The translations under genes and the position numbers were made by a program. Below are positions 41,066 to 64,000 of a stretch of 64,000 bases of DNA, piece after piece. The stretch's first letter is position 1, and each line of letters begins with the position of its first letter. Source of the stretch: an uncultured bacterium (GTDB taxonomy: Bacteria; Cyanobacteriota; Vampirovibrionia; Gastranaerophilales; Gastranaerophilaceae); assembly GCA_949298985.1 (NCBI GenBank), contig CASFYV010000026.1, forward strand, positions 186,001-250,000. The letters are read 5' to 3'. The notes beneath the pieces are model-generated. The model searched no databases and was not told the origin of the DNA. It was given only the letters and a program-made list of their open reading frames with translations.

Positions 41066-41902
41066 ATGGGTTACAAAATACTATCAAAAAAAGAACTTTG
41101 TCCAAATCAATACGAAATTACTATTGATGCACCTTATGTTGTAAGAAATGCACAAGCAGGACAATTTATTATATTCAGAGCAGAGGAAAACGGAGAAAGA
41201 GTTCCTCTAACTATTGCAGACGTAGATAAATCAACAGGAGCTTTAACACTTGTATTTATGGCAGTTGGATATTCTACAAAAAAATTAGCAGAACTTAATG
41301 TTGGCGACGAATTAGTAGACATAGTAGGGCCTCTTGGTAAACCAACAGAAATAAAAAAATATGGAACTGTTGTTTGTTTAGCGGGGGGTTACGGAGCAGC
41401 ACCTTGTTATTTAATAGCAAAAGCGTTCAAAGAAGCTGGTAATAAAGTTTACATGATTATGGGTGCGAGGACAAAAGAATTAATTTTCTGGGAAGACAAG
41501 ATGAAGAATGCTTGTTCAGAATTATTCATAACAACAGACGACGGAACTCTTGGAGAAAAAGGTTTTGTAACAGGAGTTCTTGACCGATTAATGAATTCTG
41601 AAAAAATAGATTATGCAATTGCAGTTGGTCCAATGCCAATGATGCGGGCTGTAGCAGAAATGACAAGAGGTAAAAATATTTACACAGAAGCAAGCATGAA
41701 TCCGATTATGGTTGATGGGACCGGCATGTGTGGGGCTTGTCGAGTTACTGTTGGTGGAGAAACTAAGTTTGCTTGTGTAGATGGTCCTGATTTCAATGCT
41801 CACGAAATAGATTTTGATGAAGTCATTAATCGTACAAAAATATATAAAGATCAAGAACGTAGACGTAGCGAAAATTGTAACTTATTAAAGATGGCAAAAT
41901 AA
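41066..41902 (+). CDS. NfnA-like FAD/NAD-binding flavoprotein (sulfide/dihydroorotate dehydrogenase-like)
   Basis: A 278-residue FNR-fold protein. The FAD site begins QAGQFIIFRAEENGERVPLT (about 31-50), the NAD-binding segment is VVCLAGGYGAAPCYLIAKA near 110, and a C-terminal [2Fe-2S] site is MCGACRVTVGGETKFAC. It matches the alpha subunit of the electron-bifurcating transhydrogenase Nfn or the similar sulfide dehydrogenase. The partner NfnB flavoprotein is not adjacent; the next genes are a small Cys protein and purA. It may work with a distant partner or alone. Confidence 0.85.
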   Translation: MGYKILSKKELCPNQYEITIDAPYVVRNAQAGQFIIFRAEENGERVPLTIADVDKSTGALTLVFMAVGYSTKKLAELNVGDELVDIVGPLGKPTEIKKYGTVVCLAGGYGAAPCYLIAKAFKEAGNKVYMIMGARTKELIFWEDKMKNACSELFITTDDGTLGEKGFVTGVLDRLMNSEKIDYAIAVGPMPMMRAVAEMTRGKNIYTEASMNPIMVDGTGMCGACRVTVGGETKFACVDGPDFNAHEIDFDEVINRTKIYKDQERRRSENCNLLKMAK

Positions 41903-59111: not shown

Positions 59112-59417
59112 TTGATACAGGCTATTGGAGGAGCAAGTAATTTTAATGATTACGAATATATGCAAATATTAAATGAATTACGCCAATTGGGAATCACTCC
59201 CAGTGGGAACAAATCTGCTGATAAATCCAAACTTGAAAAAGCAAAACTTGAACTCGTTCAAAAAATTAACGAAAAACAGGAAGAAGATACAAAACAACAA
59301 CTACAAATACAGCCTGTAAAATCAACAGACGATGTTCAAAGAACTCAAATAGAAAATGAAAGAATTGGTGCAATGACAGTTGCAGAACTAAATAAAATTT
59401 ATTTTGGATTATTATAA
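59112..59417 (+). CDS. Small helical lineage protein, unknown function
   Basis: A 101-residue hydrophilic protein. A TTG start at 59112 is chosen because AAAGGAG lies 8 bases upstream; an earlier GTG at 59076 would place the ribosome site inside the gene. The chain is charged and helix-rich (KSADKSKLEKAKLELVQKI) with a short conserved-looking end AMTVAELNKIYFGLL. The region SNFNDYEYMQ near the N-terminus may be a variant of the phenylalanine motif. Ends in a bidirectional terminator. Confidence 0.6.
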   Translation: MIQAIGGASNFNDYEYMQILNELRQLGITPSGNKSADKSKLEKAKLELVQKINEKQEEDTKQQLQIQPVKSTDDVQRTQIENERIGAMTVAELNKIYFGLL

Positions 59418-59447
59418 AAAAGAAGCGGTTTTAAAACCGCTTCTTTT
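59416..59447. terminator. Bidirectional terminator
   Basis: AAAAAGAAGCGGTTTT pairs with AAAACCGCTTCTTTTT without mismatch. It serves the plus-strand small gene and the minus-strand hydrogenase-like operon, touching the stop codons of both. Confidence 0.92.
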
Positions 59448-60187
59448 TATTTTTTAGAAATAAAATCTAAAACTCCATTAATAAATGTCAATGGATGAAC
59501 AGGACATCCTGGGATATATAAGTCAATCGGATATTTTTCTAAAAATTCTCTATTAAGTTTAGAAGAATTTTGAAAAACACCACCAGAAATTGCACAAGCT
59601 CCAGCTAAAATTACAATTTTAGGATCAGGAGTATGCTTATAGCAATCTTCTAAGGCCCAAGCCATATTTTCTGAAATTGGTCCGGTTATTACAATACCAT
59701 CTGCGTGACGAGGTGATGCAACAAAATCTATACCAAATCTGCCCATATCAAAGTTACAATTTGAACAAGCATTTAATTCCATTTCGCAACCATTGCATCC
59801 AGCAGCAGATACTTGTCTTAATTTTAAAGACTTAGAAAAAACTCTATGAATTTCTTTTCTAGCTTCTATCGCAACTTTTTCAAACTCATCCGGTGTCATA
59901 TTTTCTGTTACAATTAACTTATTTCTATCAGTAGAAGATAATTTATAATAATTACTAAATTTTATAGCTTCACACTGACATTCACCGCATAAAGTACATT
60001 TTCCCATATCTATAGATAAAGGATTTGATTTTAAAGCTCCTGTTGGACAAATTGATTCATCAATCTTACAACCGTCACAAGATTTTAAAATTGGAAAACC
60101 TCTAAACTGACTACGCATAGGAGCGTTTGGAATATCCGGAATATATTGTTTCCCTTGAAAATATTTTAATTTTAACGTATCAAACAT
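59447..60187 (-). CDS. Ferredoxin-fused NuoB-like small subunit (HyfH-HyfI fusion)
   Basis: A 246-residue protein joining a ferredoxin-like region to a NuoB/hydrogenase small-subunit domain. The latter has the four ligands of the proximal [4Fe-4S] cluster: C130 and C133 in AAGCNGCEME, C197 in AGACAISGGVF and C227 in PGCPVHPL. The N-terminal cysteine sets are atypical: C37xxC40xxD43xxxC47P, where the third cysteine is aspartate, and C64xxC67xxC70xC72, which lacks the usual spacing. E. coli Hyd-4 encodes these parts as separate HyfH and HyfI. Last gene of the operon as seen here. Confidence 0.87.
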   Translation of the reverse strand: MFDTLKLKYFQGKQYIPDIPNAPMRSQFRGFPILKSCDGCKIDESICPTGALKSNPLSIDMGKCTLCGECQCEAIKFSNYYKLSSTDRNKLIVTENMTPDEFEKVAIEARKEIHRVFSKSLKLRQVSAAGCNGCEMELNACSNCNFDMGRFGIDFVASPRHADGIVITGPISENMAWALEDCYKHTPDPKIVILAGACAISGGVFQNSSKLNREFLEKYPIDLYIPGCPVHPLTFINGVLDFISKK

Positions 60188-60244
60188 AGTAAATTTCCTT
60201 ATTCTTAATAACTTCTTTAAAAAGACATCTCTATAAAAAATATC

Positions 60245-61708
60245 CTATAAATCATTTCCACAATATGACAAATTAAAACTCTTGTTACATAATGGAAAGT
60301 CTGAAACTCCATTATTTCTAACCGCCATTGCAAGCATATACCAGTTATTAAAAGATGGATCTTTCATTTTATAACGCAAAAGTTCTCCATTAGCTCCTGT
60401 TAAAGCTATATGAACAACTTCACCTCTCCAAGCTTCTGTCATTGATATTACCATAGAATTAGAAGCCAATACATCATTAGGAGTTACTTTTATAGGTTCA
60501 GCTTTATACTCTTTAAGCTTAGCTAATAATTTTCTTACAATTTGCATTGATTGCTTAATCTCTTTATATCTTAATCTAAATCTTGAATGCACATCACCTG
60601 TTGCTTTAAATGGAGATCTAACATCTAAAGCTGCATACCATTTATCATTGAAATCAAATCTGGTATCAATATCAACGCCAGAAGAACGAGCTGCCATACC
60701 AACTGCACCCAGCGATTTAGCAGTTTCGGTGCTTACAACACCGGTTCTTTCCATTCTTGAAATACAAGAAGGTTTACTTAACATAACTTTAGAAGTTCTA
60801 TCAACAGTTTTTTCAACTCCTTCTAACATATTTAAAATCTTTTCGGCCATTTTTTCATCAATATCAAAGTTAACTCCTCCAACATTGATTAAACCTCTTC
60901 CGAAACGACTACCAGAGATTTCAAGCATTGTATTAATTACAAGAGTTCTTGTAATTCCAAAAATAGACGCCCCCATCAAATATGCTATATCACCTGAAAT
61001 AGCACCTAAATCACCAATATGAATGGCAATTCTTTCCATTTCTAAAGCAATTCTTCTTATAATTTGAGCTTTTGAAGAAACCGCAGAATTTGATAATTCT
61101 TCCATAGCTTGAGAATAAGCTAAATTATAAGCAATAACAGAATCGCCACAAACGGATTCAGCTAATCTATTATTATATCTTTTGCTATTTAAAAATAATT
61201 CTTCAACACCTCTATGTTGATAACCCAACATTATTTCTAAATCATAAACTTTTTCACCTTGGCACATAAACCTAAAATGACCAGGTTCAATAACTCCAGC
61301 GTGAATAGGACCAACTGCAACTTGGTGAACATCCTCTCCTTTCATCTCAAAGAAAGGATATTTATCCTGATTATTTCTTACAGGTTTTAACCAAGGATGA
61401 TTTAATGGCTCTATACCAAATTCTTCATAAAATTCACGTTCGAAAATATGAAAAGCAGGAAATTTTTGAGTAAAAGATTCATAAGATTTCATATTTTGGT
61501 AAAATAAAGTTGATGTTACATATAATTTTCCAACTTTATCATCAGCCATAACAATATACAATCTTATGTTATCAAATTCTTTTTTACCAAAAAATCCAAC
61601 AACACGCATTTTCATTTTTTCAAGATCAGCTTTAATATCTTCAATTGAAATTGTTGGAATATCTAAAGCGTTAATCTTTTTATTATTTTCTGTAATTATC
61701 CAATTCAT
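60245..61708 (-). CDS. Hydrogenase-4-like large subunit without NiFe ligands (30/49 kDa fusion)
   Basis: A 487-residue protein joining a NuoC-like N-terminal domain (1-120) to a NuoD/HycE-like large subunit. In active NiFe enzymes the L1 motif is CGxC and the L2 motif DPCxxC. Here L1 is SVCGDSVIAY (only C187 remains; the second cysteine is S190), and the C-terminus is SFNLSYCGNDL, where both L2 cysteines are replaced (S481 and G484 by alignment). So no NiFe site can form. HPWLKPVRNN and LGYQHRGVEEL are conserved. It fits the Ehr type (hydrogenase-related) complexes. Confidence 0.88.
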   Translation of the reverse strand: MNWIITENNKKINALDIPTISIEDIKADLEKMKMRVVGFFGKKEFDNIRLYIVMADDKVGKLYVTSTLFYQNMKSYESFTQKFPAFHIFEREFYEEFGIEPLNHPWLKPVRNNQDKYPFFEMKGEDVHQVAVGPIHAGVIEPGHFRFMCQGEKVYDLEIMLGYQHRGVEELFLNSKRYNNRLAESVCGDSVIAYNLAYSQAMEELSNSAVSSKAQIIRRIALEMERIAIHIGDLGAISGDIAYLMGASIFGITRTLVINTMLEISGSRFGRGLINVGGVNFDIDEKMAEKILNMLEGVEKTVDRTSKVMLSKPSCISRMERTGVVSTETAKSLGAVGMAARSSGVDIDTRFDFNDKWYAALDVRSPFKATGDVHSRFRLRYKEIKQSMQIVRKLLAKLKEYKAEPIKVTPNDVLASNSMVISMTEAWRGEVVHIALTGANGELLRYKMKDPSFNNWYMLAMAVRNNGVSDFPLCNKSFNLSYCGNDL

Positions 61709-61737
61709 AATTAACTTTTAACCTCTTAATTTTAAAA

Positions 61738-63171
61738 CTAAAAACCAGCAACTGCCGCTAAAATTGAAATAACAATATCTTTTGGCATATAAATACCAAT
61801 AACAAAAGCTATAATAAGCATCGTAATTTGTGGTAAATACATTGTCCAACTAAGTTTTTCAACTTTTTCAACATCATCTTTATTATCTGTGAATGACATT
61901 TTAATAACAGCTTTTCCTAAACCATATAACACAATTGTTAAAAGTAACAAGAAAACTACGCACATTAAGAAATGTCCTTTTAAAAACATCGTCTTAACCA
62001 TTAAAAATTCACTAATAAATAGAACAGAAGGCGGAAATGCAACAATTCCTAGAAAAGAAGCAATCCATAACCAACCGGTCATTCTATCTTTCTTTAATAA
62101 ACCTGTTACAGATTTAATTTTTTTAGTACCATACAATTCTAGCACATTTCCTGATGTTAAGAAGAATGAAGCTTTTATTAAAGAATGACCAATCAAATGT
62201 ATCATCGCAGCCAACATACCAATACCACCTAAGGCAGTGCCAATTGCTAAAATACCCATATTTTCAATAGAAGAATAAGCAAGCATTCTTTTATAATTAT
62301 TAATATGATAAACAAAAACGGCTGTTATAAATAGAGATAAAAATCCCATTGTAAATAACATAATTCTTGCATAACTATCACAACCGGATAAAACCATAAC
62401 TCTAAACATATTTAAGATAACTAAAAATGCTGAATTTAAAAGAGTAGCTGAAAGCAATGCAGATATAGGAGAAGGAGCTTCTGCGTGTGCATCCGGCAAC
62501 CAGAAATGAACAGGAGCTAACCCCATTTTTGTACCTATTCCGAATAAAATGAACACAAAAGATAATTTTAACCAGAATGGATTAAATAAAACAGCATTAT
62601 TATATAAATCAATATAGAATAAAGAATTCAAATTACCTGTTGCAACCGTTAATAAAATTATTCCAACAAAAGCTAAAGCAATACCGATGGAACAAATAAA
62701 TACATATTTCCAAGCAGCTTCAATAGAATGTTTTGTTTTATGGAAATAAATTAAATACGCGCTTGCTAAAGTAGTACCTTCAATGAATACCCAAGAAACA
62801 CCTAAATTTGTACTTAAAATAGCACCAGTCATAGAAAAAACAAAGAACAATAACATATAAGTATAATGTCTTAATTTTCTCGTAAGCGAACTGTCATTTC
62901 TTAAATATCCGTTATTATAAATTGCAACTGCTAAAAATACCATTGACATAACCATCAAAAATATTTTATTAGTAGCATCTACTGCAAAAAATTTACTAGC
63001 AGTCCACAGAGGAAGAAAATCTATATTTAAACATAAAGCTAAAGAAACAACGAAATGAACAATTGCGTATAAATTTACCATCCAATTATTTAAAGCTCTA
63101 TTTTTAAATATAAATAATATCAAACACGCTAAAAGCGGAAATAATAAAATTAAATTAATCATTGTATTCAT
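61738..63171 (-). CDS. HyfF/NuoN-like proton-conducting membrane subunit
   Basis: A 477-residue antiporter-like subunit with about fourteen hydrophobic segments. The signature is GLAPVHFWLPDAHAEAPSPI followed by SALLSATLLN near 230-250. It is related to NuoL/M/N and HyfF/MrpD. It probably carries the ion pumping of the complex. It overlaps the HyfE-like gene by 17 bases and is followed by the large subunit gene 29 bases on. Confidence 0.93.
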   Translation of the reverse strand: MNTMINLILLFPLLACLILFIFKNRALNNWMVNLYAIVHFVVSLALCLNIDFLPLWTASKFFAVDATNKIFLMVMSMVFLAVAIYNNGYLRNDSSLTRKLRHYTYMLLFFVFSMTGAILSTNLGVSWVFIEGTTLASAYLIYFHKTKHSIEAAWKYVFICSIGIALAFVGIILLTVATGNLNSLFYIDLYNNAVLFNPFWLKLSFVFILFGIGTKMGLAPVHFWLPDAHAEAPSPISALLSATLLNSAFLVILNMFRVMVLSGCDSYARIMLFTMGFLSLFITAVFVYHINNYKRMLAYSSIENMGILAIGTALGGIGMLAAMIHLIGHSLIKASFFLTSGNVLELYGTKKIKSVTGLLKKDRMTGWLWIASFLGIVAFPPSVLFISEFLMVKTMFLKGHFLMCVVFLLLLTIVLYGLGKAVIKMSFTDNKDDVEKVEKLSWTMYLPQITMLIIAFVIGIYMPKDIVISILAAVAGF

Positions 63172-63862
63172 AGTCCTTTAAATCTGATAATTGTGAAACT
63201 TCTAAATCTTCAAACTCATTATTAATTTCTTTAACCAACATTCCTAAAATGAATACTGCGATAAAGATATCTAATAAAACTCCCATATTTACAATAATAG
63301 GCATTTCTTTTGCAACTGATAAAGACAATAGAAATATACCATTTTCCATTGTTATAAAACTTATAACATTGGATAAAACAGTATGTTTAATTGTAATAAG
63401 CCATAAGCTAGTAATAATAACAGCAATAGAAACACCAAAGTACATAGGAGAAACCAATCTAAATTCCGTAGCATGAATATTAGCAAGCATAAAACCAGCA
63501 AACAAAATCATACTAGAAATAAATAATGAATAAAAATGCGGAATATTAGCATCTGTATCTCTATGAGCGTGAGTTTTTCTCAAAACCTTCTTTAAAAATA
63601 TAGGAATTACAACTGCCTTAACAATTAAAGTCTCAACTATTACAAACAAAAAACCAATAATATGAGGCATATTTGCGATAATAGCATCCGGAGTTGATAT
63701 CATTCCAATATTAAACCAAGGTTCTTTTGCAAATCCAGTAAGACATACAAAGAACAATAACCAACCTTGAGCAACTAACATATTAACATGAGCTAACAAA
63801 CGACTGGTTGCAGCAATGTATATCATAGATAAGCCTAATAAAATTATAAATATGTTTTCCAT
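63155..63862 (-). CDS. HyfE-like membrane subunit
   Basis: A 235-residue hydrophobic protein with about seven helices, matching hydrogenase-4 subunit E, whose C-terminal part is NuoK-like (VISFITMENGIFLLSLSVA, then MGVLLDIFIAVFILGML). The conserved glutamate in TMENG is retained. It overlaps the antiporter-like subunit gene by 17 bases. The order E-F-G-HI agrees with the hyf operon. Confidence 0.88.
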   Translation of the reverse strand: MENIFIILLGLSMIYIAATSRLLAHVNMLVAQGWLLFFVCLTGFAKEPWFNIGMISTPDAIIANMPHIIGFLFVIVETLIVKAVVIPIFLKKVLRKTHAHRDTDANIPHFYSLFISSMILFAGFMLANIHATEFRLVSPMYFGVSIAVIITSLWLITIKHTVLSNVISFITMENGIFLLSLSVAKEMPIIVNMGVLLDIFIAVFILGMLVKEINNEFEDLEVSQLSDLKDYEYND

Positions 63863-63914
63863 AATATCTATATTTACCTCTTATTTTACCTTTTTACATT
63901 ACTTTACTACTATA

Positions 63915-64000
63915 CTATCCCCCATAAACCCTATACGTAACTAACGCAAGAATTAAGAGAGCAGTAAGAGTCATAACAAATATGAATTCAAAAACGTGTG
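63915..64000 (-). CDS. C-terminal end of a membrane subunit (probably HyfC/NuoH-like), partial
   Basis: The last 27 codons of a minus-strand gene that begins outside the window: the visible residues start HVFEFIFVMTLTALL, form one hydrophobic helix and end TYRVYGG before a TAG at 63917-63915. Its place just upstream of hyfE suggests HyfC/NuoH, since that is the neighbour in hydrogenase-4 operons; an antiporter-like HyfB is the alternative. The identity rests on position only. Confidence 0.5.
   Translation of the reverse strand, partial: HVFEFIFVMTLTALLILALVTYRVYGG

What the first reader, a model, noticed from the sequence alone, without database searches (positions are those of the whole stretch)
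59447..64000. Hydrogenase-4-like operon whose large subunit has lost the NiFe site
The large subunit keeps the fold and conserved segments, but L1 reads CGDS (C187, S190) and the L2 region reads NLSYCGND, so three of four Ni-binding cysteines are gone. The accompanying small subunit keeps all proximal-cluster cysteines. This is not a hydrogenase; the complex resembles the Ehr (energy-converting hydrogenase-related) family with unknown electron acceptor. A strict anaerobe with VOR and NfnA could use it as a ferredoxin-driven ion pump.
Basis: partly seen in the sequence, partly recalled or inferred. Interest (0 to 1): 0.75.

Follow-up and report, generated by a model that had tools for sequence, protein, structure and literature searches.

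The report
Ehr complex: hydrogenase relative without nickel site
The window ends in a six-gene membrane complex of a gut cyanobacterial relative (Gastranaerophilales) that looks like a hydrogen-making enzyme but has lost its nickel-iron site; this is the already described 'Ehr' complex, probably an electron-driven ion pump, so the finding is real but not new.

Summary
The large subunit (60245-61708, minus) aligns residue by residue with E. coli HycE. Of the four NiFe cysteines only C187 remains; C244, C531 and C534 of HycE become S190, S481 and G484. Among 50 orthologues even C187 is replaced in 5. HypD is absent from the genome. The small subunit keeps the proximal-cluster cysteines, so this is not a [NiFe] hydrogenase.

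The operon runs beyond the window: hyfB-hyfC-hyfE-hyfF-large-small. The host is a Gastranaerophilales (gut Melainabacteria) species.

[quoted passage not shown] Matheus Carnevali 2019 report Ehr in Melainabacteria.

Added here: the small subunit carries a fused ferredoxin domain reduced to one cluster (N6b type); no molybdopterin oxidoreductase, FeFe hydrogenase, Rnf or clear MenD was found; antiporter residues are intact; the operon is split in some relatives. Best model: reduced ferredoxin drives ion pumping through two remaining clusters, acceptor unknown. A sister family shows the mirror image: four NiFe-type cysteines kept, proximal-cluster ligands lost, no HypD.

The parts
59447..60187 (-). 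Small subunit (HyfI/NuoB-like, 246 aa) with fused N-terminal ferredoxin domain
   Evidence: Pfam PF01058 E=3e-28 at residues 131-240; weak NuoI matches at residues 24-110
59942..60100 (-). Ferredoxin domain (about residues 30-82): only C47(P), C64, C67, C70 invariant = one [4Fe-4S], N6b type; C37/C40 lost in most orthologues
   Evidence: conservation in 52 orthologues; full two-cluster version in relatives L101, L103, L105, L120
59504..59797 (-). Proximal-cluster ligands C131, C134, C198, C228
   Evidence: invariant in 52 orthologues; aligned with MbhJ, HycG, Nqo6
60245..61708 (-). Large subunit (HyfG/NuoCD-like, 487 aa), no C-terminal extension
   Evidence: PF00346 and PF00329; best PDB sequence matches MbhL 6cfw and HycE 7z0s; best fold match HycE 7z0s
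61139..61159 (-). L1 motif ESVCGDS (residues 184-190): second ligand lost
60248..60283 (-). L2 motif KSFNLSYCGNDL (residues 476-487): both ligands lost
61738..63171 (-). HyfF-like antiporter subunit (477 aa)
   Evidence: PF00361 E=3e-47; NCBIfam hydrogenase 4 subunit F best match, below cut-off; key charged residues kept
63155..63862 (-). HyfE-like membrane subunit (235 aa)
   Evidence: NCBIfam hydrogenase 4 membrane subunit E=8e-16, below cut-off
63915..64000 (-). 3' end of the HyfC/NuoH-like subunit (305 aa); rest of hyfC and hyfB (660 aa) lie beyond the window at C26:249915-252824
59417..59448 (+). Terminator-like palindrome (14 pairs) at the 3' end of the operon; a second, minus-strand one lies beyond the window between flgC-like gene and hyfB
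   Evidence: consensus match only

Best explanation
This is an Ehr (energy-converting hydrogenase-related) complex of the complex I superfamily, not a hydrogenase. Shown from sequence: six subunits in order B-C-E-F-large-small; no NiFe ligand set; proximal [4Fe-4S] ligands intact; a fused ferredoxin domain reduced to one cluster with the ligand set of complex I cluster N6b; antiporter residues intact. Inferred: reduced ferredoxin, made by the single 2-oxoacid:ferredoxin oxidoreductase found, gives electrons to the N6b-type cluster, then to the N2-type proximal cluster, then to a small acceptor in the vacated NiFe pocket; this drives H+ or Na+ pumping by HyfB and HyfF. The acceptor is unknown, and the reverse direction (ion gradient used to reduce ferredoxin, as Di Rienzi 2013 suggested) is possible. 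Identity as a non-hydrogenase Ehr complex is about 0.95 likely; the ferredoxin-linked ion-pump mechanism about 0.55.
For: Ligand mapping to HycE and 50-orthologue conservation; no HypD in own genome or in 16 other same-family genomes tested; antiporter Glu/Lys/His of HyfB, HyfF and HyfC invariant and shared with E. coli Hyf and Nuo; strong purifying selection; N6b-type ligands invariant, N6a-type lost; no molybdopterin oxidoreductase, no FeFe hydrogenase, no Rnf, one OFOR, NfnA; tree puts all Ehr rows together at 100/98, apart from Hyf/Hyc; published Ehr descriptions.
Against: No biochemistry exists for this clade. The acceptor pocket lacks known quinone ligands of complex I (T. thermophilus H38 aligns with I140) and no clear MenD was found (best hit far below cut-off), so no acceptor can be named. 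Related complexes lost the proximal cluster (L122; L106-L112), so a redox role is not universal in the wider clade. The family is patchy among Gastranaerophilaceae. The genome is 94% complete in 31 contigs, so absences are not absolute.
Confidence: 0.6

Rival explanations
1. A true but divergent [NiFe] hydrogenase that binds its metal site with other residues.
For: C187, E141 (HycE E193) and R428 (HycE R478) are kept.
Against: Three of four ligands lost, C187 lost in 5 of 50 orthologues; no HypD; canopy D529 of HycE, called strictly conserved in PMC9474812, is N479 here.
Confidence: 0.02
2. An FDH-Ehr supercomplex oxidising formate, as proposed for Riflemargulisbacteria and Saganbacteria (PMC6349859) and hinted by Geobacter proteomics (PMC7894505).
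For: Published proposal.
Against: No molybdopterin oxidoreductase in the genome (the same search rings in 11 of 14 controls); no such gene beside the operon.
Confidence: 0.04
3. A quinone reductase: reduced ferredoxin to menaquinone with proton pumping, like an extra NDH-1.
For: Pocket is where complex I binds quinone; one MenA-like prenyltransferase, below cut-off, exists; an 11-subunit Nuo also present.
Against: MenD best hit 52.9 bits against a cut-off of 244; Di Rienzi report no quinone carriers in Melainabacteria; complex I quinone ligands not conserved. The futalosine pathway was not tested.
Confidence: 0.15
4. A mostly non-redox ion transporter or antiporter whose hydrophilic arm is a structural or regulatory relic.
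For: Some clade members lost the proximal cluster (L122, L106-L112); one Fd cluster is already lost here.
Against: All proximal ligands and the N6b-type ligands are invariant in 52 Gastranaerophilales sequences.
Confidence: 0.15

Closest known systems
Ehr complexes reported in Melainabacteria and other bacteria (Di Rienzi 2013 PMC3787301; Matheus Carnevali 2019 PMC6349859; CPR Ehr PMC7304191; Geobacter EhrABCDLS PMC7894505)
   Same: Six subunits, Hyf-like membrane arm, large subunit without NiFe ligands; same bacterial group for the first two papers
   Different: Ferredoxin domain fused to the small subunit and cut down to one cluster; not described in the passages read
E. coli hydrogenase 4 / formate hydrogenlyase (HyfBCEFGI, HycE 7z0s)
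   Same: Gene order and subunit folds; best fold match
   Different: No HyfA, HyfD, HyfH or HyfJ beside the operon; no NiFe ligands; no C-terminal extension
Pyrococcus MBH (6cfw)
   Same: Best PDB sequence match for both subunits
   Different: MBH has the NiFe site and Mrp-like subunits
Pyrococcus MBS sulfane reductase (6u8y)
   Same: Complex I relative without hydrogenase activity
   Different: Weaker sequence match (2.9e-14 against 3.8e-43 for MbhL)
Complex I NuoD/NuoB of the same genome
   Same: Same superfamily; separate 11-gene operon at C16
   Different: Paralogue; NuoB has tandem CC, the Ehr small subunit has CxxC

Membership tests
Ehr complex | Homologous to group 4 [NiFe] hydrogenase large and small subunits | tested here: met
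Ehr complex | Lacks residues that coordinate Ni and Fe | tested here: met
Ehr complex | Mrp antiporter-like membrane subunits | tested here: met
   PF00361 in HyfB and HyfF, conserved charged residues
Ehr complex | Groups with published Ehr large subunits in a tree | tested here: inconclusive
   All ligand-less rows form one group at 100/98, but no published reference Ehr such as Geobacter EhrL was available for the tree
Ehr complex | Couples a cytoplasmic redox reaction to ion translocation | not testable with these tools
   needs vesicle assays
Group 4 [NiFe] hydrogenase | L1 CxxC and L2 CxxC ligands | tested here: not met
   C-G-D-S and S-Y-C-G
Group 4 [NiFe] hydrogenase | Hyp maturation machinery in the genome | tested here: not met
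   HypD absent; the other Hyp proteins were not searched
Complex I | NuoD quinone-site residues and tandem CC in NuoB | tested here: not met
MBS/MBX | Phylogenetic grouping with MbsL/MbxL | not tested
   only pairwise scores were compared

The most novel reading that the evidence does not exclude
Within one clade of Hyf-like complexes the two halves of the redox site are lost in opposite ways: Gastranaerophilales lose the NiFe ligands and keep the proximal cluster, a sister family keeps four NiFe-type cysteines without HypD and loses proximal-cluster ligands, and a Meiothermus plasmid complex loses both. If so, the conserved function of the clade is ion transport or sensing rather than one redox reaction, and the four-cysteine site of the sister family binds something other than NiFe(CN)2CO.
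Probability: 0.15. Interest if true: 0.6.

Novelty: already known. Interest (0 to 1): 0.25.

Why it matters
Ehr complexes are widespread and no member's reaction is known. Gastranaerophilales offer a reduced case: one OFOR found, no formate dehydrogenase, Rnf or FeFe hydrogenase found, and a two-cluster electron path. That narrows the donor to ferredoxin (or a like carrier) and removes the formate hypothesis for this lineage. The mirror-image sister family would make a useful natural control.

Tried and rejected
Hydrogenase reading: rejected by ligands and missing HypD. Formate dehydrogenase partner: rejected for this genome. Pseudogene decay: rejected by low dN/dS. Flanking genes (flagellar flgB/C/F/G-like, ShlB-like) as functional partners: not pursued; terminator-like sites lie on both sides of the operon. 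AlphaFold model of the large subunit (pLDDT 78, pTM 0.84): the pocket segments 111-161, 185-187 and 464-487 have pLDDT under 50, so it says nothing about the acceptor site.

Full report
What is there. The stated genes are present at the stated coordinates. The window is G000:C26:186001-250000, and the contig continues; the operon upstream adds hyfC and hyfB, giving hyfB(660)-hyfC(305)-hyfE(235)-hyfF(477)-large(487)-small(246). Domain searches agree. Terminator-like sites stand at both ends, and flagellar basal-body-type genes precede it (named by eye, not by a family search).

Host. A search of 84,980 species genomes returned 54 loci at 61-98% identity. Where the record names the group it is nearly always Gastranaerophilales or Melainabacteria; the rest are titled only as uncultured bacterium, bacterium isolate or, in one case, cyanobacterium.

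The NiFe site. A multiple alignment with E. coli HycE and HyfG, the host's own NuoD and related complexes gives HycE C241->C187, C244->S190, C531->S481, C534->G484; E193->E141 and R478->R428 are kept; D529 becomes N479. The protein ends at NDL, with no maturation tail. Among 50 orthologues no ligand position keeps cysteine throughout. HypD is absent from the genome. Only HypD was searched, not the other Hyp proteins.

The small subunit. Proximal ligands C131, C134, C198, C228 are invariant in 52 sequences. The N-terminal ferredoxin domain keeps only C47(P), C64, C67 and C70. From general knowledge of complex I (NuoI), that is the N6b ligand set; the N6a set is lost or degenerate in most. Relatives in other families of the phylum (L101, L103, L105) and a Variovorax plasmid complex (L120) keep both sets, so the loss looks derived in Gastranaerophilales. 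Proteobacterial relatives L121, L123 and L124 have no ferredoxin domain on the small subunit.

The membrane arm. Charged residues of the antiporter-like subunits (for example HyfB E139, K220, K251, H344, E403; HyfF E131, K215, K294, E388) are at least 97% conserved and shared with E. coli Hyf or Nuo subunits. dN/dS against L007 is about 0.02-0.06 for five of six subunits (NG86, one pair).

Operon in relatives. Order is conserved in most loci, but L011, L012, L016 and L018 carry large and small subunit genes alone, with a HyfE gene elsewhere in each genome; L040 has an insertion between hyfF and the large subunit gene. In 386 genomes of the phylum, matches at E<=1e-30 occur in 72; these include weaker matches (about 110-162 bits) that are NuoD or other group 4 proteins, so 72 is an upper count. 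Several close relatives lack it.

Metabolic setting. One OFOR gamma subunit in the genome, inside the window's VorB-like operon; NfnA-like at 41066-41902; an 11-gene Nuo without NuoEFG. No FeFe hydrogenase, RnfD/NqrB or molybdopterin oxidoreductase. MenD-like best hit 52.9 bits, cut-off 244; one MenA-like prenyltransferase below cut-off.

Tree. Rooted on NuoD, the ligand-less rows form one group at 100/98, sister to a four-cysteine group L106-L112 at 100/100, apart from HyfG/HycE. Long branches were flagged, so deep placement is tentative. The ligand columns were left out of the tree.

Prior art. Di Rienzi et al. [quoted passage not shown] Matheus Carnevali et al. 2019 report Ehr in four Melainabacteria genomes (PMC6349859). 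The finding is therefore known; the single-cluster ferredoxin domain and the missing formate partner are added detail.

How it probably works. Shown: parts list, ligands, selection. Inferred: ferredoxin to N6b-type cluster to proximal cluster to an unknown acceptor, with ion pumping. The pocket was not modelled with confidence; the overall fold matches HycE best.

Side finding. Family f4 of the same class (L106-L112) has L1 CGMC and L2 CYAC/CYSC but small subunits with CNAE (or SNAE), GDGAC and PG[ND]P in place of CNGC, GAC and PGCP, and HypD is absent in 11 of 11 f4 genomes searched. The Meiothermus plasmid complex L122 has neither set. I could not find a description of this in the searches made, which is not evidence that none exists.

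Noticed in passing
L106-L112 (family f4 of the same class): Same six-gene order but mirror-image degeneration: large subunit keeps all four NiFe-type cysteines, small subunit lost proximal-cluster ligands, and HypD is absent in 11 of 11 f4 genomes.
   Followed up: partly
L122 (Allomeiothermus silvanus plasmid pMESIL01), 9031-11180: Ehr-like complex that lost both NiFe ligands and proximal-cluster cysteines, keeping a one-cluster-like ferredoxin motif.
   Followed up: partly
L011, L012, L016, L018: Large and small subunit genes stand apart from the membrane-arm genes, HyfE being on another contig in each genome.
   Followed up: partly
L040 5267-6899: About 1.6 kb with unrelated ORFs inserted between hyfF and the large subunit gene.
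   Followed up: no
L120 (Variovorax plasmid): Two adjacent Hyf-like operons; the first is the nearest non-phylum relative of the window's complex at 40% identity.
   Followed up: no
L004 4125-13520: The host also carries an 11-gene complex I lacking NuoEFG.
   Followed up: no
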